DNA of 64,000 nucleotides from Hymenobacter canadensis (lineage in GTDB: Bacteria > Bacteroidota > Bacteroidia > Cytophagales > Hymenobacteraceae). This document shows positions 2,858 to 64,000 of the stretch, one piece after another. The stretch is from assembly GCF_027359925.1 (NCBI RefSeq), contig NZ_CP114769.1, positions 1 through 64,000 on the forward strand, in the 5' to 3' direction. Position numbers and translations under genes: made by a program. Within the stretch, counting starts at the first letter, position 1. Each line of letters begins with the position of its first letter. Below the pieces are notes generated by a model, which was not told the origin of the DNA, did no database searches, and worked only from the letters and a program-made list of their open reading frames with translations.

Positions 2858-3820
2858 ATGGAAAACTCCGCCGAGCTCTCAGTTCCCGCTCACGCGTCGG
2901 CGGCACTGGCGCACCTGACCGAGCACACCAACCGCTACGTTGAGGCCGGACTGAGCGGCGCCGCGAACACGGCCAAAGCGTACGCCGGGGATTTGAAACG
3001 GTTTGGGATTTGGTGTGCCGAGCACGGACTCGAGCCGCTGCCGTGCTCGGTGGATACGCTCGCCGGATTTGTAACGCACCTGGCCGAAACCGGCAAAAAG
3101 GTGTCGACCATTCAGCGGCACTGTGCGGCCGTGACCAAGGCGCATGCCTTGCGGGGGATTGACTCGCCCACGGACGACAAGAAGTTTAAGGTGCTCATGG
3201 AAGGCATCGCCCGGATTAAGGGCGTGCGCCAGAAACAGGCCCCGGCCTTTACGCTGGCCAACTTCAAGCGGACGGTGAGAAGCATCAATGGCAAAACGCT
3301 GGCAGGCATGCGCGACCGGGTGATTCTGCTGCTGGGGTTTACCGGAGCCTTTCGGCGCTCTGAGCTGGCCGCGCTGAATATTGAGGACTTGTCGTTTTCG
3401 GAGGAAGGGTTGATAGTCAACCTGGCGAAGAGCAAGACTAATCAGTACAGCGCGGCTGAGGAAAAGGCCATTTTCTACTCGCCGGATTTCAAGCTGTGCC
3501 CGATCCGAACATTGGAGGCATGGATTAAACGACTGGACCGAACCACGGGGCCGGTTTTTGTATCCTTTCGTAAGGGTGAACGGCTGACGGAACGGCGGCT
3601 GACCGATAAGCACCTGAACTTGATTGTGCAGCGCTATCTGGGGCCGAAGTATTCTGCTCACTCGCTGCGAGCATCGTTTGTGACAGTGGCTAAACTAGCT
3701 GGAGCAGATGATTCAGAGGTAATGAATCAGACCAAGCACAAGACAAGTGAGATGATTCGGCGTTACACCCGTCTTGACAATGTGCGCCAGCACAATGCTG
3801 CACAGAAATTAGGACTCTAA
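2858..3820 (+). CDS. tyrosine recombinase / phage-type integrase
   Basis: The enzyme cuts and rejoins DNA at specific sites through a 3'-phosphotyrosine link. The catalytic set is complete: R166 in GAFRRSEL, K193 in KSKT, H268 and R271 in HSLRAS, H294 in TKHKTS and Y303 in RRYTR. Residues 15-110 form the SAM-like core-binding domain. The length of 320 residues is normal for XerC/D-like and small plasmid or island integrases. It is followed after 130 bp by a degenerate serine recombinase and then the SIR2-STAND gene, so it may mobilise that cargo or resolve replicon multimers. Nothing specific to integron integrases was recognised, although no alignment could be made. Confidence 0.93.
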   Translation: MENSAELSVPAHASAALAHLTEHTNRYVEAGLSGAANTAKAYAGDLKRFGIWCAEHGLEPLPCSVDTLAGFVTHLAETGKKVSTIQRHCAAVTKAHALRGIDSPTDDKKFKVLMEGIARIKGVRQKQAPAFTLANFKRTVRSINGKTLAGMRDRVILLLGFTGAFRRSELAALNIEDLSFSEEGLIVNLAKSKTNQYSAAEEKAIFYSPDFKLCPIRTLEAWIKRLDRTTGPVFVSFRKGERLTERRLTDKHLNLIVQRYLGPKYSAHSLRASFVTVAKLAGADDSEVMNQTKHKTSEMIRRYTRLDNVRQHNAAQKLGL

Positions 3821-3950: not shown

Positions 3951-4487
3951 ATGCAGATCGCTTTGTACACCCTCGTCCCAACTAAGGACAAGGTGCAATC
4001 CGTCGAGAACCAGCTGCCGGAACTACGCCGCTTCGCCGCGGTCCACGGTTGGACAATCCATAAAGAGTATTTGAAAGAGGAGTCAGCTGGTATCGGCCAG
4101 CGGAGCCAGTTTAAAGCAGTGTTTGCCGATGCCCACCATCGACATTTTGATATGGTACTCTTTTGGAACATATACCGCGTCAACCATGAAGGAGCCTTTC
4201 CAACTTTGATGTATCTGAACATGCTGGAAACTCATGGGGTCAGCTATAAGTCACTCATTGAGCTCCTTGATTCAATAATGCTATTCAAGGATGCTATTAT
4301 CGCAGTGCTGGCTACTACTGCTAAACAAGCGCTGACTCGGTTAAGTGAGCGCACCAAGACTAGATTGGCAAGAGCAGTTGCAAAAAGGAAAACTTTAAGC
4401 CGGCCTACTATGACCTCGGAAGTAATGTCAACGCTAGACAGATGGAAGATCTGGGAACATCTATTAAAAGATTACGTTTGGTACTAA
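3951..4487 (+). CDS. degenerate serine recombinase (resolvase/invertase fold), probably inactive
   Basis: The whole length follows the resolvase catalytic fold: ALYTLVPTKDKVQSVENQ aligns with the N-terminal strand and active-site loop, FDMVLFWNIYRVNHEG with the usual DRLxR segment, and LSERTKTRLARA with the E-helix (SERTKAGL). Key residues are replaced. The nucleophilic Ser of the R-V-S-T motif is Pro10, the preceding Arg is Leu, the Asp of DRL is Tyr75 and the following Arg is lost. The C-terminal helix-turn-helix is short and poorly conserved. The frame is nevertheless fully open over 178 codons, suggesting either recent decay or retention as a DNA-binding or regulatory protein. Confidence 0.7.
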   Translation: MQIALYTLVPTKDKVQSVENQLPELRRFAAVHGWTIHKEYLKEESAGIGQRSQFKAVFADAHHRHFDMVLFWNIYRVNHEGAFPTLMYLNMLETHGVSYKSLIELLDSIMLFKDAIIAVLATTAKQALTRLSERTKTRLARAVAKRKTLSRPTMTSEVMSTLDRWKIWEHLLKDYVWY

Positions 4488-54030: not shown

Positions 54031-54039
54031 AGAGTTTCG

Positions 54040-54276
54040 CTTATAAAACGTGCTAGTTGGTATTGGTAGAGAGTAGGTGACTTATAAAACGTGGTAATTC
54101 ATTATTAGTTATAAGCTATTACAAAGTTAGTAATCATTATCAAGGTCCTTGAAAAAGTCAGCAAGGCTTATAAAAAGTGGCGCTGACACGGGAATAGCTG
54201 CCGCTTCACTAGTAACTGGGCTTACTTATGAAAAGTGGTTTTAAGTAACTAATATTATGTAAATGCTTAGAAAAGT
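54040..54276 (+). repeat. iteron block I
   Basis: Direct repeats of CTTATAAAACGTGG and variants start at 54040, 54081, 54167, 54225 and (degenerate) 54265. The last positions alternate between ACGTGG and AAGTGG. They are the reverse complement of the repeats in block II. Such iterons bind RepB/Rep_3 initiators. Confidence 0.82.
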
Positions 54277-54468
54277 GCAATCCCTGTAATCGTTAGGTCA
54301 GCCTGCTTTTTTGTTGTCTTCTTGTTTGCTTTGGCCCCAGGCTTGCATCCTGGTCCTGAAAGCTAGTCCGTCTGCGTATCAACAACCTTTGTGAATTTAT
54401 TTGTTAATCCTTGTCTATTTGTAGGGTTCATAAACCACTGATCCTCAATAGCATATAAAGGTATAAAA

Positions 54469-54568
54469 CCACTTTTTATAAGCGAAAAACCACTTTTTAT
54501 ACTCTTTATTACCACGTTTTATAAGTGAACTCTCACGTTTTATAAGTCTATAGACCACGTTTTATAAG
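54469..54568 (-). repeat. iteron block II, inverted relative to block I
   Basis: CCACTTTTTATAAG at 54469 and 54490 (the latter ending ATAC) and CCACGTTTTATAAG at 54512, 54534 (first C is T) and 54555 form five spaced copies. Together with block I they frame an AT-rich core of about 190 bp, the probable replication origin. Confidence 0.84.
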
Positions 54569-54570
54569 TG

Positions 54571-54602
54571 AAAAACCACGTCCAACTACCACTGTGGTTT
54601 TT
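54571..54602 (+). terminator. hairpin with T-tract in the rep leader
   Basis: AAAAACCAC (54571-54579) pairs with GTGGTTTTT (54594-54602), followed by another T. It lies about 55 bp before the rep start, directly after the last iteron, and could attenuate rep transcription. Confidence 0.45.
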
Positions 54603-54655
54603 TAGTTTCTGGTAACTTACATTTGCTTTATCCCCACCCCTTTATATCGTGATCT

Positions 54656-55606
54656 ATGAAATCCGAAGATACTACTACTGTACTTGTGGACTCGGCTCTG
54701 GTTCCCGTCGTTCGTCAGCACAACGCTATCACCCAGGCTCGCTACGACTATACGGCCTGCCAGCTTGATATCTTCTTCTATTTGCTCTCCCGGCTACGCC
54801 GGGATGATGCCCCGGACCAGGAGTACACCATCTACGTGAAGGACGTGGAGGCCCTGACCGGGCGGCAGTGGAACTACCAGCAGCTGCGCGAGGCGACGGC
54901 CGACATGGGCTCGCGCATGTTCGAGGTGGAAAACGAGCGTACCTACCAGCAGCTATGGATGTTTCAGCGGGTGGAGTACATCAAGGGTAAGGGCTGCCTG
55001 CAGATTCAGTTGGCGGCACCCATCCGGCCTTTCTTGTTCAACCTCAAGGAGAACTTTACTTCCTACCAGCTGCACTCGGCGCTGAAGCTGAGCAGCAAGT
55101 ACGCCAAGCGCATCTACCAGCTGGTGAGCCAGTGGAAGGATAAAACGAGTACGCGCACCTACCCGCTGGACGAGTTCAAGCAGATGCTGCACTTAAAAGA
55201 CCCCAAGGGCAAGGAACCGGAGCTGTTTCAGAACATCAGCCAGCTCAAGGCCCGAGTGCTCGACATTGCCGTGCGCCAGGTCAGCGAGCACACCGACCTG
55301 CGGATTGATTATCAACTGCTCAAGAAGGGGAGGGCCTACGACGCGGTGCGCTTCACCATCGCCCGTCAGCAGCCCCAGCAGCTGCCCATCCCTTTTGAGC
55401 AGCCCGCCGAAGATGCCCGCGCGCACGCGGCCCGGCAAAGCCTGGAACTGCTGGGCATCATCCAGCCCCAGCTGGTGGCCACCATCCTGGCCGACCCCAA
55501 ACACCTGGACCAACTCTTCAAGTTTACCTACCAGCTAAAAACCGACAAGGTGAAGGCGACCAAGAACCCTGGGGGGCTGTTCCTGAAAATCTGCGGGCTG
55601 CGTTAG
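54656..55606 (+). CDS. RepB-family (Rep_3) plasmid replication initiator
   Basis: The protein binds iterons and opens the origin. Residues 18-45 (QHNAITQARYDYTACQLDIF) and ALTGRQWNYQQLREATADMG belong to the first winged helix. SALKLSSKYAKRIYQLVSQWKDK and TYPLDEFKQMLHLKD form the second. The length of 316 residues is typical. The gene is preceded by two iteron blocks and a hairpin, so initiation is likely self-limited by iteron binding. It is the clearest evidence that this window is or derives from a plasmid. Confidence 0.94.
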   Translation: MKSEDTTTVLVDSALVPVVRQHNAITQARYDYTACQLDIFFYLLSRLRRDDAPDQEYTIYVKDVEALTGRQWNYQQLREATADMGSRMFEVENERTYQQLWMFQRVEYIKGKGCLQIQLAAPIRPFLFNLKENFTSYQLHSALKLSSKYAKRIYQLVSQWKDKTSTRTYPLDEFKQMLHLKDPKGKEPELFQNISQLKARVLDIAVRQVSEHTDLRIDYQLLKKGRAYDAVRFTIARQQPQQLPIPFEQPAEDARAHAARQSLELLGIIQPQLVATILADPKHLDQLFKFTYQLKTDKVKATKNPGGLFLKICGLR

Positions 55607-55975: not shown

Positions 55976-56215
55976 GATTTTATTGGTGTAAATCGCCCGC
56001 TCTGATGCGCAATATCATGAGCTATTATACCTATAGCTGTGCACTATATCGGGCATTATGTAAAGAGATGAAAATTAGATAGGAGAGGGGAGGAACTAAC
56101 GGTCCCAGGCCCGGAAAAGTCTTGTTTTCATCGAGGCATCGGCTCCCATAACTACGGTTTTGACGACCATTGCCGTCCTAGCTTTATCGCGGACGCCCAG
56201 GACTCTTTGTGATGC
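55976..56215. other. intergenic region before the cassette array
   Basis: AT-rich for the first 120 bp, then GC-rich. No gene is supported. A degenerate version of the cassette repeat may occupy 56216-56250 (TTATTTTGC, then GCGTTATTGCCCAT). Confidence 0.35.
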
Positions 56216-56263
56216 TACGCTTATTTTGCCGGCAAATGCGTTATTGCCCATTTCTTAGCCATT

Positions 56264-56710
56264 ATGCGGTCGCACACTCTGTTTTTGCCAATCCTCCTAG
56301 CCCTGGGTGCCTGTAAAAATACAGATCCAGCGCCTCCGACCCCGCTGGCCTTATTGACGGCGCATCCGTGGCACGTAGTTGCCTTAACGACTACGGCAGC
56401 AGGAATTACGACGGACCGATATGGTGCTATTCCCGCGTGCATCCGCGACAACCGCATCCAGTTTTACGCCGACCAGCGGCTGGTTACTGATGAAGGAGCG
56501 AGCCGCTGCGCCGCTACTGATCCTACCCAAACGACCGGCCAATGGTACTGGGCCGGTGGGGAGACGCAATTAACGGGATCGGTCCCTTACTTACCTTATT
56601 TGCTAGCTAGCACACTGACCATTAGCAAATTATCATCATCGATCTTGCAATTACGTTACCAAAAGACTAATTCGTCAGACTTTGCCGATGTGACCTTCCA
56701 AGCCAATTGA
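56264..56710 (+). CDS. small lipoprotein, lipocalin-like (cassette ORF 1)
   Basis: MRSHTLFLPILLALGACKNT is a lipoprotein signal with the Cys in an LALGAC lipobox. The mature part begins with a Pro/Ala linker, then TPLALLTAHPWHVVALTTT and IQFYADQRLVTDEG, the pattern of lipocalin-like domains in Bacteroidota lipoproteins. It has 148 residues. The first clear array repeat begins 20 bp after its stop. Confidence 0.72.
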   Translation: MRSHTLFLPILLALGACKNTDPAPPTPLALLTAHPWHVVALTTTAAGITTDRYGAIPACIRDNRIQFYADQRLVTDEGASRCAATDPTQTTGQWYWAGGETQLTGSVPYLPYLLASTLTISKLSSSILQLRYQKTNSSDFADVTFQAN

Positions 56711-56730
56711 AGGCCCCTGCGAACCCGGTG

Positions 56731-56763
56731 GCGCCTTTCGGCCATCAGAGAGTTTGACTGAAC
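56731..56763 (+). repeat. cassette repeat 1
   Basis: Ends GAGAGTTTGACTGAAC. It lies 20 bp after ORF 1 and 5 bp before the stop end of the minus-strand ORF 2. Confidence 0.65.
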
Positions 56764-56768
56764 AGCAT

Positions 56769-57053
56769 TTATCGAGCTGCCTGACTTTGCCTGGTTACGA
56801 AGAGTCGTTTAACCAGTCCCCATACACCGGTTGCCAATACGCCCCAGCCCAACGCGTTGATACACAGGGCAGCGAGAAAATATCCTTCCTTGGTAGTCGC
56901 CAAGTCGAGAGGATAGGAGCCGAGGAAGATGACCGCTTTTGCCCACCACGGCTTGGGAGCACCCCAGGTCACTAGAAACGGCGCGGATAGCGCCACCACC
57001 AGCAGATAGGCCAAAATGCAGAAAAGGGTACTAAGGATTAGCCGTGGGCGCAT
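56769..57053 (-). CDS. small membrane protein (cassette ORF 2)
   Basis: The 94-residue protein has a hydrophobic N-terminal helix (LILSTLFCILAYLLVVAL), a second weaker segment around WWAKAVIFLGSYPLDL and a third (YFLAALCINALGWGVLATGV). No family was recognised. It is the only ORF between repeats 1 and 2 and lies opposite to them. Confidence 0.65.
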   Translation of the reverse strand: MRPRLILSTLFCILAYLLVVALSAPFLVTWGAPKPWWAKAVIFLGSYPLDLATTKEGYFLAALCINALGWGVLATGVWGLVKRLFVTRQSQAAR

Positions 57054-57194
57054 GCGATGGCTGGTAAGCGTCGAAGTGGCGAAAGCATCCTACTGATTCG
57101 GGATGGTGTGACGGACCTCCGCCGCAGCGTCATTCCCCAGTCGCGAGGAGTGCTTGGTCGTCGCCCAATATAAGGCTCCTTCAACTGAGCCGAG

Positions 57195-57226
57195 CGCGTT
57201 TAACCTATCACCGTTTTCTTATAGAG
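57195..57226 (+). repeat. cassette repeat 2
   Basis: CGCGTTT, an 8-nt spacer, then ACCGTTTTCTTATAGAG. The final part is diverged. It lies 21 bp before the ORF 3 start. Confidence 0.6.
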
Positions 57227-57247
57227 TCCTTACTTTGGCTGTATCAA

Positions 57248-57790
57248 ATGATTAAAGCAGTTGGGACCCTTCTTCTCGCCTTCACGTTCGCCACGGGCCA
57301 TTGCTCTGGGCAAGGGTTGGTGTCGTGCAGCAGTGGCGTGGCCGACTCGCTAGACTGCCCGCAGATTACGCTGGATAGTTTCTTAGGGAAAGGCAGACGG
57401 CAACCCGCCCCTGACGCCGTGCTCTTCCAAGGCCGGGTCGTCATCAGTCGCGTGTGCTCCCTGGGAAACGGGCTGGTCTTGGTGGGCTTTGGCAACGAGC
57501 ATTCCAATGGGGAAGCCTTCACCTTGCCCTGCGCCACCCTCTCGCCCGACGCCCCCTTCAATAGCACCCGTAACGGGGTGCGCGAGGGCCTGTGGTTTCA
57601 CCAGAACGTCTTCGGCACTATCACCAACGCCACGGAATACAAGGGAGGAGAACGGCAGAGTGTACTACGTTTTTGGTCCAACGGGTTGCCCCGTCAGCGT
57701 ACCTTCTACAAACAGGGTAAGCCACGCTCATGGGGGCAAAAGCAGTATGATAAAAAGGGGTATCCACTGAATGGCATGAGGCCTTTCTAA
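57248..57790 (+). CDS. secreted protein with MORN-like end (cassette ORF 3)
   Basis: The leader is MIKAVGTLLLAFTFATGHCS, followed by a 160-residue mature part. The C-terminus contains LRFWSNGLPRQRTFYKQGKP, a MORN/YwqK-like unit. The middle is beta-rich (VLFQGRVVISRVCSLGNG). Its stop is 6 bp before the next repeat. The function is unknown. Confidence 0.7.
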   Translation: MIKAVGTLLLAFTFATGHCSGQGLVSCSSGVADSLDCPQITLDSFLGKGRRQPAPDAVLFQGRVVISRVCSLGNGLVLVGFGNEHSNGEAFTLPCATLSPDAPFNSTRNGVREGLWFHQNVFGTITNATEYKGGERQSVLRFWSNGLPRQRTFYKQGKPRSWGQKQYDKKGYPLNGMRPF

Positions 57791-57796
57791 GTTGCC

Positions 57797-57828
57797 CTCG
57801 TTTTGCTCTAATCACTCTTTTATTGAAC
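57797..57828 (+). repeat. cassette repeat 3
   Basis: CTCGTTTTGCTCTAATC then ACTCTTTTATTGAAC, 6 bp after ORF 3 and 33 bp before ORF 4. Confidence 0.7.
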
Positions 57829-57861
57829 AGCCTATCTTGAACTTAGCGGGCTAGCACTACT

Positions 57862-58572
57862 ATGGGAGCGTACCAAGAGGAATTGCACGCCCTGCGCCAA
57901 CGCACCCCCATTGGCGTGCGCCACGGGCTGGCGCTGTTACAGCAAACCAACGGCGATGTGGCAGCCGCCGAATCCCTGTTTCAGCAGGAACTCACGCGGC
58001 TGGTAGCCCACCAAGCACAGGTGCCCGATGCCGCGGCGCGCCACGCGTTGGAACGAGCGGGCTATGATGTACCGCGCACCTTGCAGCAGCTGGAGCAGGC
58101 CCGATACTCACTCACGCAGCGCATCCTGCGGCGGTATCCCGTATCCGACGATGCCGTGCGCCGGGTGGCCGACGCGGTGGAGCAGGCGCACCAAGTGCCC
58201 CGCACGTACTGGCTCGACTTCGAGGCCGCCCAGTTGTTGCCGCCCCCCGTAGCCTGTGTGCTGGTGGTGAGCGAGTGGCTGGCCTACGAAGACTGGGAAA
58301 GCTTGGAAGCAGCCGTGTATTTCTACCTCGAGCCGGTGCTCGCGTACGTCGACCAGCTGTTGGCGCTCCCACAGGTCAGCCAGGCCCTGCTGTCTGTAGC
58401 CGCGCTCGAACAGGCGCAAGCTGAGCCCCGTCGCCGCCAACTGGCCCGCACGGAAAGCTACAGCCCTACGCCGGAACTTGAGGCGGCCAGTGCTGCGTTT
58501 GAGGCGATGCGCCCGCGCATCGTGCAGCGCCTGTACGAGTTGATTGAACACCATATCGCGCTCTTCCCATAA
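57862..58572 (+). CDS. helical protein with UBA-like motifs (cassette ORF 4)
   Basis: The 236-residue cytoplasmic protein contains two successive segments like the UBA/TS-N three-helix fold: IGVRHGLALLQQTNGDVAAA and, at about 55-80, AARHALERAGYDVPRTLQQL. The rest is helical with a Pro-poor C-terminus. UBA-like domains are common in bacterial elongation factor Ts, but a protein built of two such units is unfamiliar. There is no signal peptide. Confidence 0.65.
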   Translation: MGAYQEELHALRQRTPIGVRHGLALLQQTNGDVAAAESLFQQELTRLVAHQAQVPDAAARHALERAGYDVPRTLQQLEQARYSLTQRILRRYPVSDDAVRRVADAVEQAHQVPRTYWLDFEAAQLLPPPVACVLVVSEWLAYEDWESLEAAVYFYLEPVLAYVDQLLALPQVSQALLSVAALEQAQAEPRRRQLARTESYSPTPELEAASAAFEAMRPRIVQRLYELIEHHIALFP

Positions 58573-58586
58573 GCAACGGTACCGGG

Positions 58587-58616
58587 ACCGTTTAGCTTCG
58601 GACCGTTTCGCTGAAC
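58587..58616 (+). repeat. cassette repeat 4
   Basis: ACCGTTTAGCTTCG then GACCGTTTCGCTGAAC, the best match to the consensus. It lies 14 bp after ORF 4. Confidence 0.75.
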
Positions 58617-58692
58617 AGTTTAAGGGACTACCCCTTGCCAGGTGGCTAGAACCTTTTCGCCTCGTTGCGTCCCTCCGCATTACTTTGTCGCC

Positions 58693-59115
58693 ATGTTCAA
58701 AAACCGCGTGTTCGCTAGTTGTTGTGTGGTACTCCTGACCACGTGTGGCGAGGCTGGCGACGGTGCGAATGGGGACTATCGCGCTGCGGCGCTCGTGTCG
58801 AGCAAAGGCGATACGGTGTTCGTCAAGAGCTACAATTGGGGCCTTATTGGCGACAGTCAAATCTCTACGGTCGCTGATAATGACCGCCCCATTGGGTGGG
58901 ACGACCAAGGTCATCCGGGCATCGTCAAAGGACTGGACCCATTTCAGTACCGCTTTGCCCACGACACGCTGACGCTGTACGCCCGCTCGCCACTCCCAGC
59001 TTTTGCCATTCGCTGTCCGTCCATCGTGATCCAGTACCAACTCGTGGACAATTCGCACTATATGCCCTTGTATCAACCACTCGGCAACTCCGCTTACCAT
59101 CGCGTGCCAGAGTAA
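58693..59115 (+). CDS. small lipoprotein (cassette ORF 5)
   Basis: I start at 58693, where MFKNRVFASCCVVLLTTCGE is a lipoprotein signal; a longer ORF from 58642 adds an unlike N-terminus. The mature domain has about 120 residues and is beta-rich (TVFVKSYNWGLIGDSQI, IVIQYQLVDNSHYM). No family was recognised. Confidence 0.68.
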   Translation: MFKNRVFASCCVVLLTTCGEAGDGANGDYRAAALVSSKGDTVFVKSYNWGLIGDSQISTVADNDRPIGWDDQGHPGIVKGLDPFQYRFAHDTLTLYARSPLPAFAIRCPSIVIQYQLVDNSHYMPLYQPLGNSAYHRVPE

Positions 59116-59125
59116 GCCTCAATCG

Positions 59126-59156
59126 CTCGTTTCGACGAATCACCCTTTCGCTAAAC
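59126..59156 (+). repeat. cassette repeat 5
   Basis: CTCGTTTCGACGAAT then CACCCTTTCGCTAAAC, 10 bp after ORF 5 and 56 bp before ORF 6. Confidence 0.72.
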
Positions 59157-59212
59157 TTTTCTCAGCTGTTGCCCCCTTGTTTGCGCGGTGCTGCTGACCT
59201 TGTGCCGTGCAA

Positions 59213-59872
59213 ATGAACAAGAAGACATGGTGGCTCGTGGTGCTGGGCGTGTGGGCACTGGCCGAAGTCGGCTACCGCACTTACGTGAATCACGCCTCCC
59301 ATTTCGGTGGCCGCCCCTACTGGCCCTATTACGCCTACTACCGCAACCGCGCCGCCATTGGGCGCCTCTACGCCCTGACCGCCCCAGGCCGGAACCAATA
59401 TGCCTCGCTCGAAGCCCGCGAGGGGCGGCTGGCCGACTCGGCGGGTCACCTGCCGCCGGCCGCCCGGGCCCTGGTGCAGCAGCTGGCCCGCGACATCGCC
59501 CCTGCCGGGTACTTCTATTTCGCCGTGAACCCGGTGCAACAGGGCGACTCCCTCATGGTTACGGTGTCGGTGCCGTGCCCGGTGTCGTGCGGCTGCTTTG
59601 AGTGGCTGCGCCCGGCCGCAGGGGGCAGCGTCTTGTTTACTCTCTCGGGTAGCGGCCCTGAACGCCGCCATACCCCGACCGAACTCGAGTACGTCCGGAC
59701 CGACAACGCCTCCGTGCAGGCCGCTTGGCGGCAGTACCCGTGCTACGCCCCCCTTGGGCCCGGAGAGTTCCTGAACGCCCAAGCACTGCGCGCGAATGGA
59801 CCGTTGCCCTACAGCGAGTACCAATCGGACCTACTGCTCTTCAAGCCCCTGCGGGCGATTGGACTTTTATAA
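59213..59872 (+). CDS. membrane-anchored protein (cassette ORF 6)
   Basis: I take the ATG at 59213; a GTG lies two codons upstream. NKKTWWLVVLGVWALAEVG is an uncleaved N-terminal anchor, followed by a 200-residue domain with a Tyr-rich start and a Cys-rich centre (SVPCPVSCGCFEW). The function is unknown. Its stop is 2 bp from the next repeat, the tightest spacing in the array. Confidence 0.68.
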   Translation: MNKKTWWLVVLGVWALAEVGYRTYVNHASHFGGRPYWPYYAYYRNRAAIGRLYALTAPGRNQYASLEAREGRLADSAGHLPPAARALVQQLARDIAPAGYFYFAVNPVQQGDSLMVTVSVPCPVSCGCFEWLRPAAGGSVLFTLSGSGPERRHTPTELEYVRTDNASVQAAWRQYPCYAPLGPGEFLNAQALRANGPLPYSEYQSDLLLFKPLRAIGLL

Positions 59873-59874
59873 TG

Positions 59875-59906
59875 CTCGTTTTACTATTTGAACTGTTTCG
59901 CTGAAC
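59875..59906 (+). repeat. cassette repeat 6
   Basis: CTCGTTTTACTATTTG then AACTGTTTCGCTGAAC, 2 bp after ORF 6 and 24 bp before the stop end of the minus-strand ORF 7. Confidence 0.75.
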
Positions 59907-59930
59907 CTGCTCGGTAGTTTGGCAACGCCC

Positions 59931-60353
59931 CTATCCGTAACGGAGGGATATACCACTGCTGCCGCCTTTTGCGTCATATACAACCTCCACGGTGCCCCAT
60001 GGGAAACGCCCTTCATGTCCCAGCTCGTCGCGTACCCACTGCTTATACTCCCCCAGTCGCTGCCGTTCGGCGCTTTCCGACCACGTATCCCAGCTGCTGG
60101 ATAATTCAAGTCGAGTGGGCGAAAAAACCAAATGGACTTGCCTTAAGCGGTTGTTATAAAAGGCAAACCCGATAGAGAAGTACTGACTTTCCTTGCGCAC
60201 GTTTTGAGTCCGCAACCATGTCCACCCGGTGCCCATGTCCTGCACCTGATGGCCCTCGCCTAGCGCAAGAGAGGCAACCGTTTCTAGCTGATCGCCGACG
60301 CAGACACGCACCGACGGGAAAAAAATCAAGTCTCCGGTTGAGCGGTCAATCAT
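59931..60353 (-). CDS. soluble protein of unknown function (cassette ORF 7)
   Basis: The 140-residue protein has no signal or membrane helix. Recognisable text is WLRTQNVRKESQYFSIGFAF and FSPTRLELSSSWDTWSE. The beta-rich pattern and size recall immunity-type or DUF proteins found in polymorphic loci, but no assignment is possible. Confidence 0.62.
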   Translation of the reverse strand: MIDRSTGDLIFFPSVRVCVGDQLETVASLALGEGHQVQDMGTGWTWLRTQNVRKESQYFSIGFAFYNNRLRQVHLVFSPTRLELSSSWDTWSESAERQRLGEYKQWVRDELGHEGRFPWGTVEVVYDAKGGSSGISLRYG

Positions 60354-60368
60354 GTCAGTAAAGGAACG

Positions 60369-60400
60369 CTCGTTTTGCTATTCAGGTCTTTTCCAGGAAC
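60369..60400 (+). repeat. cassette repeat 7
   Basis: CTCGTTTTGCTATTCAG then GTCTTTTCCAGGAAC, 15 bp from the ORF 7 start codon. The interval to repeat 8 (about 100 bp) holds no ORF: an empty or deleted module. Confidence 0.65.
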
Positions 60401-60502
60401 GGATAGAGACGGATGGCTAGGAAGATGGACCATACAATTTGGTCCCAAAGGCGTTGCGTAACCTCTGCCGGTAGAAGAGGCCGTACAAAACCAGGCTGAA
60501 CC

Positions 60503-60535
60503 CTCGTTTTGGCAAATTTGACTGTTTTGCTGAAT
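60503..60535 (+). repeat. cassette repeat 8
   Basis: CTCGTTTTGGCAAATTT then GACTGTTTTGCTGAAT. It lies 48 bp from the stop end of ORF 8. Confidence 0.73.
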
Positions 60536-60583
60536 GAATCAGCGCGTTTGCCCACTGCAAGCAGGAAGCCCCCGCTCTTTGGC

Positions 60584-61123
60584 TCAGTCGAGGGATGAGG
60601 CCATGAACCGCTTGTGGCGGGTATATCGTCCGGCCGTGGCGGCTAGCAAGTGCGAAAACGCCTGTTCCAAGGGGCGGTTTGCCAGCAAGGAGGTCAGCAA
60701 ATGGGTCTGGCCCTGATGCTGTATTTTCAGGTAGTGGTAGGACTGAAAAGCGTAATTCTCCCAATCTATTTGCAGGTACGTGGCCCCAGCGGCATGCAAT
60801 TCGACCGCCTCCATCTCCCTGTACGGCAGGACGACCATTGCTCCCCCCTGCGTCACCTCCAGTCGGTCCTCAAACGCGGCGACGGTTGTGTGGCGGTTGC
60901 GTAGATAATACTCCCCGTGCATGTAAAGCCCAGGGCCGAAGTAGGGCACCATGCCTAACAGAATGAAGCCTACCGGTAAGGCATAGTTCCCTGTCACGGC
61001 CAGTAAAATTCCGAGCGCGATGAAGGAATAGAACAGGTGCCGCAAGGCGTAAACATGCGTGCGCAGCGTAATTACAAAAGGGTTCATCCAGTAGTAGCTG
61101 CCAGCATAACGGGTACCCGACAA
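60584..61123 (-). CDS. membrane protein with a PH-like (YcxB-type) domain (cassette ORF 8)
   Basis: Two adjacent hydrophobic helices (HLFYSFIALGILLAVTGN and LPVGFILLGMVPYFGPGL) are followed by a beta-rich soluble part with TTVAAFEDRLEVTQGGAMVV and VLPYREMEAVELH, the pattern of YcxB/PH-type domains. A start at 61087 (MNPFVITLRTH) is an alternative. The function is unknown. Confidence 0.68.
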   Translation of the reverse strand: MSGTRYAGSYYWMNPFVITLRTHVYALRHLFYSFIALGILLAVTGNYALPVGFILLGMVPYFGPGLYMHGEYYLRNRHTTVAAFEDRLEVTQGGAMVVLPYREMEAVELHAAGATYLQIDWENYAFQSYHYLKIQHQGQTHLLTSLLANRPLEQAFSHLLAATAGRYTRHKRFMASSLD

Positions 61124-61150
61124 AGGTGCGTTTAAAAAGCGTTGTAATCC

Positions 61151-61180
61151 CTCGTTTAACGTCAGACCATTTTAGTAAAC
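61151..61180 (+). repeat. cassette repeat 9
   Basis: CTCGTTTAACGTCA then GACCATTTTAGTAAAC, between the two minus-strand ORFs 8 and 9. Confidence 0.65.
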
Positions 61181-61248
61181 TTAAGCGTTCGTGGTGGCCT
61201 GTAACACGTGACCCTGCGGTAGTGGCCGTAGGACCAGCACCCGTGCCT

Positions 61249-61863
61249 TTATAGCTTGCAAGCGAAATACTGCCCCCGCACGGATTGGAAGTACACCACA
61301 CGGCCGTCCGGCGAAAACCACACCCGGTCCCGTCCCCGGGCGTGGGTCTGGGCCTTTGCGAGCGGCACCGTCTGGGTGCGCACGACTTTTTGGGAGGGGG
61401 TGACGCGCCAGACGTAAAGCGTGTCGTGTGCGTCGGTGTCGCGCTCCTCGTTGAAGCAGACGATGACGTTGCGGTGGCGCATGGGGTACCCGCGCAATTG
61501 GTACGGCGCGCACCCACCGGGGGGGAGCAGCAGGTACGCGGAGCCGTGGTACCGTTCCTGTTCAAGAACGGCGAACCGTGGCGCCGGGCCGAGGGCACCG
61601 ACCGCCCGGTAGGTGAAACGGGAGTCGTCGGCGCGGTTGTTTTTGAAGAATGGACAGCCCGCCACCGCCACGCCAGCGCCGCGCGTTTGCAAGGCCGGGG
61701 CCGGGGTTGGTTTTTCCGGCGCCACGCTGCGTGCCCGAAACCGCGGGTCGGCAGGCATCACTTGACCCGAACAGGTCGCCCCGGACAACAGCGCCAGCAG
61801 CACCAGATGAGCGTTCAGCGAGGAAACCCGAAGCGGCGCGGAAGGAAGGAATCGAGTTGGCAT
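61249..61863 (-). CDS. secreted protein of unknown function (cassette ORF 9)
   Basis: The leader LNAHLVLLALLSGATCSGQV is a signal peptide, with a Cys that could be lipidated. The mature part (about 170 residues) has a Pro/Ala linker, then YRAVGALGPAPRFAVLEQER and RVWFSPDGRVVYFQSVRGQ, which suggests a short beta-sheet or propeller-type domain. No family was recognised. Confidence 0.65.
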   Translation of the reverse strand: MPTRFLPSAPLRVSSLNAHLVLLALLSGATCSGQVMPADPRFRARSVAPEKPTPAPALQTRGAGVAVAGCPFFKNNRADDSRFTYRAVGALGPAPRFAVLEQERYHGSAYLLLPPGGCAPYQLRGYPMRHRNVIVCFNEERDTDAHDTLYVWRVTPSQKVVRTQTVPLAKAQTHARGRDRVWFSPDGRVVYFQSVRGQYFACKL

Positions 61864-61984
61864 TGACGTGCTTTAACCGATTGCCCAAGAGGGGCAGTGG
61901 CGACCGACAATGTTACGGCACAGCCCCGGGTTGTAAAAGAAACTACAGAACGGATGACGTATATCCTCCTTCAACTGAACTGAG

Positions 61985-62016
61985 CACGTTTACCTTGCCA
62001 CCGTTTGACTGTTCAC
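61985..62016 (+). repeat. cassette repeat 10
   Basis: CACGTTTACCTTGCC then ACCGTTTGACTGTTCAC, 27 bp before ORF 10. Confidence 0.6.
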
Positions 62017-62043
62017 CTTTCTTTTTTCTGACAATCCTGAAGC

Positions 62044-62466
62044 ATGCGTAAGCAAGGATTCCTTACTCAGTTCCTCTACCTTATTCTCTACGCAGCAAGT
62101 GGGCTCTTCACCTTGTTCTGGGCCAGTGTCTTCTTTCTCGGGTCGGAGGATACCGTTTTCCGGCAGATTGAAGAGCACGGATTGTTGGTACTGTTTTTAA
62201 AGCGATTTCTAGGTTTTGCGATGCTGGGCGGACTGGTCGCCTTAGGCATCACGGTGCCTAGTATCCTGCTTCAGGTTTGGCGGGAGCAAAAGGATTGGTC
62301 GGAATCCAAAGAGGTATTTAAACGGGCCCTTTTCTCGCAAGTACTTTGTGCGTTGTTCGGTAGTGCGTTTTTCTCCCTTTCGGTAAGGGACAGTATACCA
62401 GATGTAAAATCTGCCATTGACCACTCCCTGATTAGTGAAGAAGCAAGCATGCCACTTCGGTCTTAA
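62044..62466 (+). CDS. small membrane protein (cassette ORF 10)
   Basis: Three hydrophobic segments are seen: FLYLILYAASGLFTLFWASV, LGFAMLGGLVALGITVPSIL and a weaker one at QVLCALFGSAFFSLS. The length is 140 residues with a short polar tail. No family was recognised. Confidence 0.66.
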   Translation: MRKQGFLTQFLYLILYAASGLFTLFWASVFFLGSEDTVFRQIEEHGLLVLFLKRFLGFAMLGGLVALGITVPSILLQVWREQKDWSESKEVFKRALFSQVLCALFGSAFFSLSVRDSIPDVKSAIDHSLISEEASMPLRS

Positions 62467-62482
62467 ATCCAGTCTACACACT

Positions 62483-62514
62483 CTTCATTCCGCTATTCGG
62501 ACCGTTTTCTTGAA
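62483..62514 (+). repeat. cassette repeat 11
   Basis: The left half is diverged; the right half is GCTATTCG then GACCGTTTTCTTGAAC. It lies 16 bp after ORF 10 and 45 bp before ORF 11. Confidence 0.68.
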
Positions 62515-62559
62515 CACAAGGTGAAGAGTTATTACTTGCCTTAACACCTGCTCTTGTCT

Positions 62560-63027
62560 ATGCACCCCGACACCATTGCCGCCAACCTTCTGCTTCAACG
62601 GGCGCTTGGCCGCTCGGCTGTCGAAAGTTTTGGCCTATCTCACCAGATTCACTTTCTGGAGTTTCGCGACGACGAGCCCCACGATCACGTACTGTCCATT
62701 GACACGGACATGTCCTCAAACGTCAGCTTCGACGGGGACCCTAGGCTCACGGCAGACGAACAACGGCTGCTGGTCTTTAACCGGGTTAACCTGCGCACCG
62801 TGACCCGGGTGGTCTGCGATGATGAAGCCAACCTGTTTCTCGACTTTGACAACGGGGTCCAACTCCGATTTGCCGGCACCTCGGCGGAGGGGTATGAACC
62901 CTGGCAACTAGGCAGTCGGATGCCCTTGGACGAGCCCGGCGGGTACTTGCTTATCGCCCAGTGCAGCGGTGGGTATGCTATTTGGGATGGGTCAGCGACG
63001 CCTACATCCCACCCTGAAAAGGTCTAA
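62560..63027 (+). CDS. soluble acidic protein of unknown function (cassette ORF 11)
   Basis: Start at 62560 (MHPDTIAANLLLQRALG); an in-frame TTG two codons upstream is less likely. The 155-residue protein is rich in Asp and Glu, with VLSIDTDMSSNVSFDGD and ANLFLDFDNGVQLRFAG. There is no signal peptide. The strand-rich pattern resembles small DUF or immunity-type proteins. Confidence 0.64.
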   Translation: MHPDTIAANLLLQRALGRSAVESFGLSHQIHFLEFRDDEPHDHVLSIDTDMSSNVSFDGDPRLTADEQRLLVFNRVNLRTVTRVVCDDEANLFLDFDNGVQLRFAGTSAEGYEPWQLGSRMPLDEPGGYLLIAQCSGGYAIWDGSATPTSHPEKV

Positions 63028-63044
63028 CTCACTCAGTTGCTTTC

Positions 63045-63074
63045 CTCGTCTAGCTTCCGACGGTTTGGCTAAAC
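63045..63074 (+). repeat. cassette repeat 12
   Basis: CTCGTCTAGCTTCC then GACGGTTTGGCTAAAC, 17 bp after ORF 11. This is the last clear copy; the sensor-kinase gene follows after about 130 bp. Confidence 0.7.
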
Positions 63075-63205
63075 TAACGAGGCAAAAAGAGATTTTACCA
63101 CTGACCAGCGGGAACGTGTCTAGCCGTTCTAACCACAGAAGTGCGAATCTGCATTCAGCATCATAAATACGATCTCGTTCGCCGGTTTTCTGTATTTTGA
63201 CTCCC

Positions 63206-64000
63206 ATGCTCCGCATCACAAACGCCGCCGCCCTTCCTTTTACCCGGCGGGACGCGGTATGGCTGGGTTTGTTTTACCTGGGGGCGGCCCTACTGGACCG
63301 CACGACGGTGTGGCTGCTGTGGGGCGGCAGGCAGGCGGCGCAGCCGCCCTACTGGGACCCTAGCGAATTGATGGCCAGCTCCGGAATTGACTTCCTGCTC
63401 CGATTTCTGTGCGCGCTCGGTATAAGCTACCTCGTGTGCGCCCGGCTGCACGCCCTCGCTCCGGGCGGGCAGGTCGTGGCATACGCCGTATTGGGGGTGG
63501 CTTTTGTGTTGATTTGCGGACTGCTAGGTGCGCAGATAAAGGCGCGGCTGGGGTGGGTGGAGCTGTTCGGCGGCAAGCTGGGGGTGTACGCCTACTACGT
63601 TTCGGCGCTGTTTTACCTGCTGCAGCTGGGCCTGATTCTGCTGCTGGTGCACATGCGCAAGTACAAACAGGCCGTGCACGCGCAAGCCGAATTGCGGGAC
63701 GCGCTGGCCCGCAGCCAGCTCGCCGCCCTCAAGGCGCAACTCAACCCGCACTTCATCCACAATACGTTCAACAGCATCAACGCCGCCATTGAGCCGGCCA
63801 ACGAGCGGGCCCGGGAGCTCATTATTGAGTTGTCGGACCTGTTCCGACACCAAAATGCCGTAGCCCAGCGGGAGTTCGTGACCGTGGCCGAGGAAATTAG
63901 CTTTTTAACCAAGTACCTGGGGCTGGTGCAGCGCCGGTTTCAAGACCGGCTGCATGTGACGTTTGCCGTGGACGAGACCATATTGTCGCGCCAGATGCCG
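63206..64000 (+). CDS. LytS-type membrane sensor histidine kinase (5' part)
   Basis: Starting at 63206 the frame stays open to the window end. At least four hydrophobic helices precede a dimerisation helix and the His_kinase box LKAQLNPHFIHNTFNSINAA, where NPHF is the hallmark of the LytS/YehU family; VTVAEEISFLTKYLGLVQRR follows. Such kinases phosphorylate LytTR-type regulators. The ATPase domain and any regulator gene lie beyond base 64000. Confidence 0.88.
   Translation, partial: MLRITNAAALPFTRRDAVWLGLFYLGAALLDRTTVWLLWGGRQAAQPPYWDPSELMASSGIDFLLRFLCALGISYLVCARLHALAPGGQVVAYAVLGVAFVLICGLLGAQIKARLGWVELFGGKLGVYAYYVSALFYLLQLGLILLLVHMRKYKQAVHAQAELRDALARSQLAALKAQLNPHFIHNTFNSINAAIEPANERARELIIELSDLFRHQNAVAQREFVTVAEEISFLTKYLGLVQRRFQDRLHVTFAVDETILSRQMP

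What the first reader, a model, noticed from the sequence alone, without database searches (positions are those of the whole stretch)
56216..63074. Candidate gene-cassette array of small exported proteins separated by a same-orientation repeat
Twelve copies of a 30-33 bp element (CTCGTTT, short spacer, GACCGTTTnGCTGAAC) alternate with single unrelated ORFs over 6.4 kb. All copies have the same orientation while ORFs 2, 7, 8 and 9 are reversed, so the element is not simply a promoter. After plus-strand ORFs it starts 2-20 bp from the stop, as attC follows integron cassette genes. One interval (repeats 7-8) is empty. The repeat shows no strong attC-like fold and no integron integrase is adjacent, so this could be an undescribed cassette mechanism.
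Basis: partly seen in the sequence, partly recalled or inferred. Interest (0 to 1): 0.92.

Follow-up and report, generated by a model that had tools for sequence, protein, structure and literature searches.

The report
Gene-cassette arrays with a serine recombinase
Plasmids of Hymenobacter bacteria carry long rows of small swappable genes joined at one short repeated sequence, and in many strains the rows point at a gene for a serine recombinase that probably moves them, so this looks like an integron built from different parts.

Summary
In detail: 11 strong same-orientation copies plus one degenerate copy (simulations average 0.06). The window shows only the start of the array. The genome's three plasmids give 128 matches; 80 kb of sampled chromosome gives none. 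The elements are recombination junctions: the same cassette occurs beside different neighbours, with identity mostly ending at ACC^[G/C]TTT. A second crossover at CTC^[G/C]TTT exchanges a linker of mostly 15-18 or 32-36 nt. Single cassettes are shared with H. yonginensis and H. swuensis plasmids. It is not an integron: no attC-like fold, no IntI above cut-off. In many genomes the arrays converge on a 204-aa invertase/resolvase-type serine recombinase gene: at 17 loci 94 of 97 elements within 10 kb point at it, and in three further named genomes 28 of 30. Its upstream region repeats the element motif; nine sister genes of another site type have no arrays. Cargo includes orphan-immunity families. 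Cassette exchange is near certain; the serine recombinase as the enzyme is inferred (about 0.65), since six of 13 array-rich genomes lack it. The window's own plasmid has an IS where it would sit.

The parts
56051..56211 (+). Leader block (type A) at the outer end of the array; shared with C4, C2 and H. yonginensis array starts
   Evidence: 83% over 161 nt with C4; 75-80% over 84-88 nt with C2 204 kb and H. yonginensis 177 kb
56264..56710 (+). Cassette ORF 1 (148 aa)
56732..56763 (+). Element 1 (weak, score 21)
56769..57053 (-). Cassette ORF 2 (94 aa), reversed
57195..57224 (+). Element 2, long-linker class
57248..57790 (+). Cassette ORF 3 (180 aa)
57797..57828 (+). Element 3
57817..58604 (+). 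Cassette with ORF 57862-58572; 98% identical to C2:283787-284581 beside other neighbours
58587..58616 (+). Element 4
58642..59115 (+). Cassette ORF 5 (157 aa)
59126..59156 (+). Element 5
59207..59872 (+). Cassette ORF 6 (221 aa)
59875..59906 (+). Element 6
59895..60384 (+). Cassette with reversed ORF 59931-60353; 95.5% identical to a cassette of the H. yonginensis plasmid, match 59892-60375
60369..60400 (+). Degenerate element 7, followed by an interval without a convincing ORF
   Evidence: read; below threshold
60503..60535 (+). Element 8
60584..61123 (-). Cassette ORF 8 (179 aa), reversed
61151..61180 (+). Element 9
61249..61863 (-). Cassette ORF 9 (204 aa), reversed
61985..62014 (+). Element 10, long-linker class
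62003..62503 (+). Cassette with ORF 62044-62466; 98% identical copies at C3:74978 and C2:155754; the three copies have three different right neighbours
62484..62515 (+). Element 11
62554..63027 (+). Cassette ORF 11 (157 aa)
63045..63074 (+). Element 12; the array goes on beyond the window

Best explanation
This is the outer end of a plasmid gene-cassette array. A cassette begins with [G/C]TTTNNNTRAAC and ends with ...CTC; a short linker ([G/C]TTT...ACC, mostly 15-18 or 32-36 nt) separates it from the next. Shown by comparison: cassettes are exchanged by site-specific recombination at ACC^[G/C]TTT, and linkers at CTC^[G/C]TTT, without homology outside. Shown: arrays carry conserved leaders at outer ends, lie in convergent pairs, and in many Hymenobacter genomes point at the gene of a small serine recombinase (204 aa, DNA-invertase/resolvase type) whose conserved upstream region starts with a CTC^[G/C]TTTNNNTRAAC-like half-site. 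Inferred: this enzyme binds the TRAAC half-sites and cuts with a 2-nt stagger at the C/C^G core; the non-palindromic core keeps all sites in one orientation and allows cassettes to be cut out and put in, probably at the recombinase end. Inferred: arrays without the gene, like the one in this window (an IS lies at the meeting point), were cut off from it and are served in trans or are fossils.
For: Same cassettes with different neighbours: 9 left-shared and 14 right-shared pairs among 134 own elements; in 334 distinct elements 12 of 13 left-shared pairs stay identical through ACC, and 15 of 29 right-shared pairs first differ at or left of position 0. Linker exchange. 20 of 36 same-family cassette pairs align end to end. 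Single cassettes shared with two other species' plasmids. 94 of 97 elements within 10 kb of the recombinase gene point at it at 17 loci, 0 elements at 9 loci of the other site type; 28 of 30 in three further named genomes. Conserved upstream block with GTTTNNNAAAC palindromes, also found without the gene at three other array meeting points or ends (C2:181.9 kb, C4:34.2 kb, H. swuensis 109.2 kb). Co-occurrence 13 of 14 against 25 of 67 genomes, p=1.8e-4. Protein class: Resolvase domain, nearest solved structures are DNA invertases and gamma-delta/Tn3 resolvases.
Against: Of 13 genomes with 9 or more matches, 6 have no TRAAC-type gene: G007, G005, G054, G069 lack any close copy and G021, G045 have only the sister type. 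14 of 29 right-shared pairs first differ inside the half-site (+5 to +11); some are single substitutions, but about six change the NNN and one clean crossover does not explain them. Left half-sites are not inverted copies of the right one. H. piscis has 2 of 6 elements pointing the wrong way, and 3 of 17 loci have no elements in the sequence held. One sister-type gene (L204) has a sister-like HTH but a TRAAC-like site. No block was found in the window's own plasmid beyond a weak 28-nt match. The genomes are related, so the p-value is optimistic, and the gene set was defined after seeing the arrays. No bench data.
Confidence: 0.65

Rival explanations
1. The cassettes are moved by the chromosomal tyrosine recombinases XerC/XerD at dif-like sites, as with Acinetobacter dif modules; the serine recombinase is a neighbour that uses the array end as a landing place.
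For: Two Xer proteins are in this genome and, judged by score only, in the 8 other genomes searched, including G003 and G069. Elements with a short linker have GTTT...AAC outer ends 27-30 nt apart, near dif length. A 7-nt region ACC[G/C]TTT common to all partners, and cassettes that keep TRAAC but change NNN, fit a two-strand exchange over a longer overlap. Leader blocks contain dif-like stretches.
Against: The genus dif is TGTCTTATAA-TTTATA-TTATGTTAA in 9 of 10 genomes and matches the element's right arm at about 5 of 11 positions (my count). Element spacing varies by 3 nt. It does not explain the pointing of arrays at the serine recombinase.
Confidence: 0.17
2. Another, unrecognised recombinase acts at the elements, for example a plasmid tyrosine integrase or an enzyme encoded in some cassette.
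For: Array-rich genomes without the serine recombinase exist. The 320-aa tyrosine integrase is common on these plasmids.
Against: That integrase is missing from G003 (36 matches), G069, G011 and G078 (best E 4.8e-4 or none), and is present in most of 81 genomes, with or without elements. No other family was seen to track the arrays in the 8 genomes searched.
Confidence: 0.14
3. The arrays are integrons (or integron remnants) with a degenerate attC.
For: Single promoter-poor ORFs, sites close behind plus-strand stops, one site orientation.
Against: No fold beyond shuffles on either strand (mean z from -0.74 to +0.27); no IntI above cut-off; the half-site GTTTNNNTRAAC does not fit GTTRRRY (recalled consensus); 62 of 164 longest ORFs run against the site.
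Confidence: 0.02
4. The elements are shared regulatory repeats, and cassettes move by homologous recombination between them.
For: The elements are intergenic and repeated.
Against: The common stretch at junctions is about 7 nt, and sites keep one orientation while ORFs do not; none in 80 kb of sampled chromosome.
Confidence: 0.02

Closest known systems
Integron / chromosomal integron (IntI, attI, attC)
   Same: Long arrays of single small genes, one site per cassette, sites close behind plus-strand genes, one recombinase gene at an array end, a conserved block at the array start.
   Different: Serine recombinase instead of IntI; no folded attC; recombinase at the inner (3') end of two convergent arrays; exchangeable linkers; many genes in reverse.
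rAID arrays of Bacteroidales (PMC12247911, preprint, passages seen)
   Same: Same phylum (recalled), arrays of short genes including orphan immunity genes, conserved intergenic motifs, recombinase association.
   Different: rAID has a predicted tyrosine recombinase and co-oriented genes; here a serine recombinase, 62 of 164 longest ORFs reversed, convergent paired arrays. rAID motifs were not compared.
Acinetobacter dif modules (pdif, XerC/XerD; PMC13141974, passages seen)
   Same: Plasmid-borne shuffled gene modules bounded by about 30-nt sites; both on Rep_3-type plasmids (for this one).
   Different: pdif sites keep dif arms and alternate in orientation (C/D, D/C); here arms differ from the host dif and orientation is constant within an array.
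Small serine recombinases: DNA invertases (Gin, Hin) and Tn3/gamma-delta resolvases
   Same: Protein family, length and domain; half-site length about 12 nt and GTTT next to the core recall gix/hix (from memory).
   Different: Known members invert one segment or resolve cointegrates (recalled); no array of many one-orientation sites round one gene was listed in my searches.
Staphylococcal SCC elements (Ccr recombinases)
   Same: Serine recombinases that integrate 'cassettes' which can stand in tandem (recalled).
   Different: Ccr are large serine recombinases acting at one chromosomal site (recalled); this protein is far below the Ccr cut-offs (for CcrB 56.4 against 900 bits).

Membership tests
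Integron | IntI integrase | tested here: not met
   6 Phage_integrase proteins; XerD above its cut-off, a XerC-like one just below its own; integron model 142.7 and 115.4 bits against a cut-off of 265, the other four not listed for it
Integron | attC site that folds as a single strand | tested here: not met
   Mean z -0.74 to +0.27 over 4 classes, 2 windows, 2 strands; 140 elements scoring above 24
Integron | Cassettes that change neighbours at a fixed point in the site | tested here: met
Integron | Primary site (attI) beside the recombinase gene | tested here: inconclusive
   A conserved half-site heads the recombinase gene and leaders occur at outer ends; capture there not shown
XerC/XerD dif module | Site arms like the host dif | tested here: not met
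   dif found in 9 of 10 genomes; about 5 of 11 positions agree (my count)
XerC/XerD dif module | Recombination depends on XerC/XerD | not testable with these tools
   needs mutants
rAID | Tyrosine recombinase at the array | tested here: not met
   No tyrosine recombinase was found within the arrays of G000; a serine recombinase lies at the meeting points
rAID | Array of orphan immunity genes | tested here: inconclusive
   SMI1_KNR4 in 4 and Imm53 in 2 of 108 own ORFs; at least 59 of 108 match no family, by arithmetic on the counts
Small serine recombinase (protein) | Resolvase catalytic domain and HTH | tested here: met
   PF00239 148.8 bits against 23.3; HTH_7 16.7 bits, below its cut-off of 23.8; invertase and resolvase structures
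Small serine recombinase (site) | Inverted half-sites around a 2-nt core | tested here: inconclusive
   Right half GTTTNNNTRAAC constant, left half differs by class; crossover interval fits a 2-nt core in most pairs but not in all

The most novel reading that the evidence does not exclude
A 'serine integron': a cassette capture and shuffling system, seen so far only in Hymenobacter, run by a small invertase-like serine recombinase encoded at the meeting point of two convergent arrays. It uses double-stranded half-sites instead of folded single strands, has exchangeable linkers between cassettes, and serves in part to trade orphan-immunity and other small accessory genes between species. It would be an independent origin of the integron way of life.
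Probability: 0.58. Interest if true: 0.95.

Novelty: categorically new. Interest (0 to 1): 0.88.

Why it matters
Integrons are the textbook gene-capture system and rest on a tyrosine recombinase and folded single-stranded sites. A system with the same logic but an unrelated enzyme family, a two-ended convergent layout and double-stranded sites would show that stockpiling genes as cassettes evolved more than once. It would give a simple model for how array order, orientation and the capture end are set, and perhaps a compact tool for inserting cassettes. The cargo links it to immunity between bacteria.

Tried and rejected
Element as promoter or terminator: rejected, because sites keep one orientation while ORFs flip, none were found in the chromosome sample, and junctions fall inside the element. 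attC: rejected on folding and lack of IntI; a hairpin I drew by hand in one class did not survive the shuffles. Xer/pdif: the host dif was located and does not resemble the element, but XerC/XerD stay the main rival. Plasmid 320-aa tyrosine integrase: rejected on distribution. A 361-aa IntI-like protein of G029 (likeness judged by eye) was not among the four tyrosine recombinases of G003. Other tyrosine recombinases: no common candidate seen. The first weight matrix drifted and was rebuilt with a stricter threshold. Model R1 scored only 75 (genus) or 38 (order) candidates per genome, so its counts are lower bounds. The recombinase in viral contigs: relatives at 67% or less, not followed. Literature: 10 searches listed no paper on such arrays in Hymenobacter or on cassette arrays with a small serine recombinase. 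They cover open-licence PMC papers only, in most of them no listed paper held the word Hymenobacter, and I judged by listings and abstract openings.
Full report
WHAT IS IN THE WINDOW. Eleven elements of about 30 nt score above 20 on the + strand between 56732 and 63074, and one degenerate copy lies at 60369-60400. Markov-1 simulations of the window give 0.06 hits on average. Single ORFs lie between them, four of them reversed. The window is bases 1-64000 of a 143-kb plasmid-like contig, C3, of a 5.09-Mb genome with a 4.53-Mb contig C1 (taken as the chromosome) and two further contigs, C2 (378 kb) and C4 (39 kb). A Rep_3 initiator with repeats before it stands just upstream of the array.

THE ELEMENT GENOME-WIDE. 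An iterated two-block weight matrix finds 87, 32 and 9 matches above 20 on C2, C3 and C4, and none in 80 kb sampled from four places of C1. Two of the C2 matches lie in 231 kb outside the arrays, and at least two of the C4 ones are isolated, one inside a tandem-repeat gene, so 128 slightly overcounts. They form arrays of one orientation: C2 148-181 kb (+) facing 183-187 and 202-204 kb (-); C2 257-269 kb (+) facing 272-289 kb (-); C3 57-79 kb (+) facing 82-85 kb (-); and a minus array on C4. Plasmids of H. yonginensis and H. swuensis that share cassettes with it show the same convergent layout (36 and 20 elements above 17 in the stretches read). A sequence-only model finds matches in 38 of 81 Hymenobacter genomes. 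At order level it finds 5 of 157, all five in this genus, of which 11 were examined; the 146 others have none. These are lower bounds, as few candidates per genome were scored.

IT IS A RECOMBINATION JUNCTION. Among 134 elements of this genome, 9 pairs share the left cassette but not the right, and 14 the right but not the left. Of 29 right-shared pairs 11 first differ at -6 to -4, 4 at -1 or 0, and 14 at +5 to +11; some of the last are single substitutions, but about six differ in the NNN of the half-site and are not explained by one clean crossover. In the window, cassette 62003-62503 recurs at C3:74978 and C2:155754 and the copies have three different right neighbours; cassette 57817-58604 recurs on C2 with other neighbours. 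Of 258 cassettes in the sequence held, 226 families were found, 28 of them with more than one member; 20 of 36 same-family pairs align from end to end, and only two adjacent pairs recur. Single cassettes match H. yonginensis and H. swuensis plasmids at about 95%, the matches ending at or within about 40 nt of the elements.

TWO CROSSOVER POINTS. When upstream regions are compared with gaps allowed, at least nine pairs (my reading, 39 shared-upstream pairs) share a cassette up to about ...CTC and then carry different linkers. So the unit between CTC^ and ACC^ is itself exchanged. Of 338 elements, 155 have CTC[G/C]TT 12-40 nt before the crossover; the linker is then 15-18 nt in 98 and 32-36 nt in 51. 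The grammar is: cassette [G/C]TTTNNNTRAAC...CTC, linker [G/C]TTT...ACC, next cassette. The linkers read like minimal empty cassettes; that is inference.

ARRAY STARTS. Outer ends carry one of two conserved blocks: type A at C2:204 kb, C3:56.1 kb (window 56051-56211), C4:3.7 kb and H. yonginensis 177 kb; type B at C2:148 kb, C2:290 kb and C3:85 kb. Other array starts showed neither in the same comparison. Type B holds a dif-like stretch in two of the three (C2:147975 and 290041, 2 and 3 mismatches) and type A a shorter one. Their role is unknown.

THE INNER END AND THE ENZYME. Six Phage_integrase proteins are encoded; two are XerD and XerC-like, and none reaches the integron cut-off. A Resolvase-domain search of 7 genomes found a gene between the convergent C2 arrays (269347-269958). 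Near copies sit in the same position in G003, G023, G029, G041 and others. I classed the loci by the region upstream of the gene. Seventeen have a TRAAC half-site and/or GTTT...AAAC palindromes; at these, 94 of 97 elements above 20 within 10 kb point at the gene (44 left plus, 50 right minus, 3 wrong), and three of the 17 have no element in the sequence held. Nine other loci hold sister genes 73-80% identical to the C2 one. Five of them have TGTAC in place of TRAAC by pattern, three by eye, and one (L209) is unclear. They have no element above 20, but L205 has one at 19.9, L209 one strict-pattern match, and L202 is a 3-kb contig. This genome helped to train the matrix. Of 16 Hymenobacter loci found later by name, ten are the same contigs (by length) as already used. 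Of six new ones, three with 90-96% identity gave H. arizonensis 17 of 17, Hymenobacter sp. BT770 7 of 7 and H. piscis 4 of 6, and three with 73-74% identity gave no elements. In 64 loci of relatives outside the genus there were 4 hits. TRAAC-type genes co-occur with elements: 13 of 14 genomes against 25 of 67, p=1.8e-4. This leaves relatedness aside, and a partial copy in G066 without elements was not counted in the 14.

THE UPSTREAM REGION. About 200 nt before the gene are conserved in most of the 17 loci. They start with CTC^[C/G]TTTNNNTRAAC or a near form (in this genome CTCCCTTTCTTAAAC) and contain three GTTTNNNAAAC palindromes; farther upstream nothing is conserved, as expected if the gene begins like one more cassette. 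The same block without the gene occurs in the other convergence gap of C2 (181.9 kb), beside the C4 array end (34.2 kb) and in the H. swuensis gap (109.2 kb); none was found for H. yonginensis, and only a weak 28-nt match on C3. In the C3 gap stands an IS with a 497-aa DDE transposase. The HTH differs between the two groups of enzymes (LSVDDMARSLRICKATFYKYL in most, against LGVNEIAQRLRISKVTLYKYL), with L204 as an exception and L199 and L203 between them.

HOW IT PROBABLY WORKS. The protein belongs with DNA invertases and resolvases. Such enzymes bind half-sites of about 12 nt, the HTH reading the outer part, and cut with a 2-nt stagger (recalled). The right half GTTTNNNTRAAC has that length; its outer part TRAAC is what differs from the sister group's TGTAC; and in most pairs the crossover interval is as narrow as a 2-nt core requires. 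A non-palindromic core gives direct repeats and hence excision and insertion. Beyond protein class and site position this paragraph is inference.

WHAT SPEAKS AGAINST IT. Of 13 genomes with nine or more matches, six have no TRAAC-type gene: G007 (32), G005 (13), G054 (9) and G069 (9) lack a close copy, and G021 (17) and G045 (11) have only the sister type. Left halves are not inverted copies of the right. Some cassettes differ in NNN. XerC/XerD remain the main rival, although the host dif is unlike the element.

CARGO. Of 164 cassettes on five replicons, median length 591 nt, the longest ORF runs with the element in 100, against it in 62, and is absent in 2. Pfam hits in 108 own-genome cassette ORFs (80 aa or more, lying within one fetched stretch) include SMI1_KNR4 (4), Imm53 (2), DUF416 (2), ADP-ribosylglycohydrolase (1) and transposases; at least 59 of 108 match nothing, by arithmetic on the counts. 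The H. yonginensis and H. swuensis stretches are annotated with Imm9, immunity 8, barstar, colicin-immunity and SMI1/KNR4 proteins. This resembles the rAID arrays of Bacteroidales, which however have a tyrosine recombinase (PMC12247911, passages).

VERDICT. Site-specific cassette arrays: near certain. Serine recombinase as the enzyme: likely, not shown. None of the systems compared here has this combination.

Noticed in passing
C3 about 79646-81250 (L034); also L038, L044, L072, L075, L151, L168, L175, L176: An IS (DDE transposase, 497 aa) has ends TTCTGCAACAGCCACG. In 9 of 31 distinct places listed the end abuts an ACC or CTC core, so the IS may hunt these sites, as ISAjo2 does with pdif (PMC10132070, abstract).
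   Followed up: partly
C2:147975-147995 and C2:290041-290061: dif-like stretches (2 and 3 mismatches to the query) inside the type B leader blocks; possibly plasmid resolution sites beside which arrays start.
   Followed up: partly
window 2858-3820: Tyrosine recombinase, 320 aa, with relatives in 76 of 81 Hymenobacter genomes; a weak resolvase match follows at 3960-4388.
   Followed up: partly
window 54036-55606: Rep_3 initiator preceded by repeats TTATAAAACGTG-like. The Acinetobacter dif-module plasmids are Rep_3 too (PMC13141974, passages).
   Followed up: no
C4:3767 (L035): A type A leader block with no array element directly behind it: perhaps an empty leader.
   Followed up: no
C4:19071-23930 (L035, L036): A gene region with about 156-nt tandem repeats (GCAGCACCGACACCGTGTTGCTG) that gives false element hits.
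   Followed up: no
L202, L205-L211, L159: Sister serine recombinases whose upstream site mostly reads TGTAC instead of TRAAC; no arrays of that type in the stretches held. What they recombine is unknown.
   Followed up: partly
L151, L155, L156 downstream of the serine recombinase: Three of six recombinase loci share the sequence that follows the gene, which looked to me like one Fic-type coding region; not searched.
   Followed up: no
window 63197-64000: Start of a sensor protein with a His_kinase domain behind the last element of the window.
   Followed up: no
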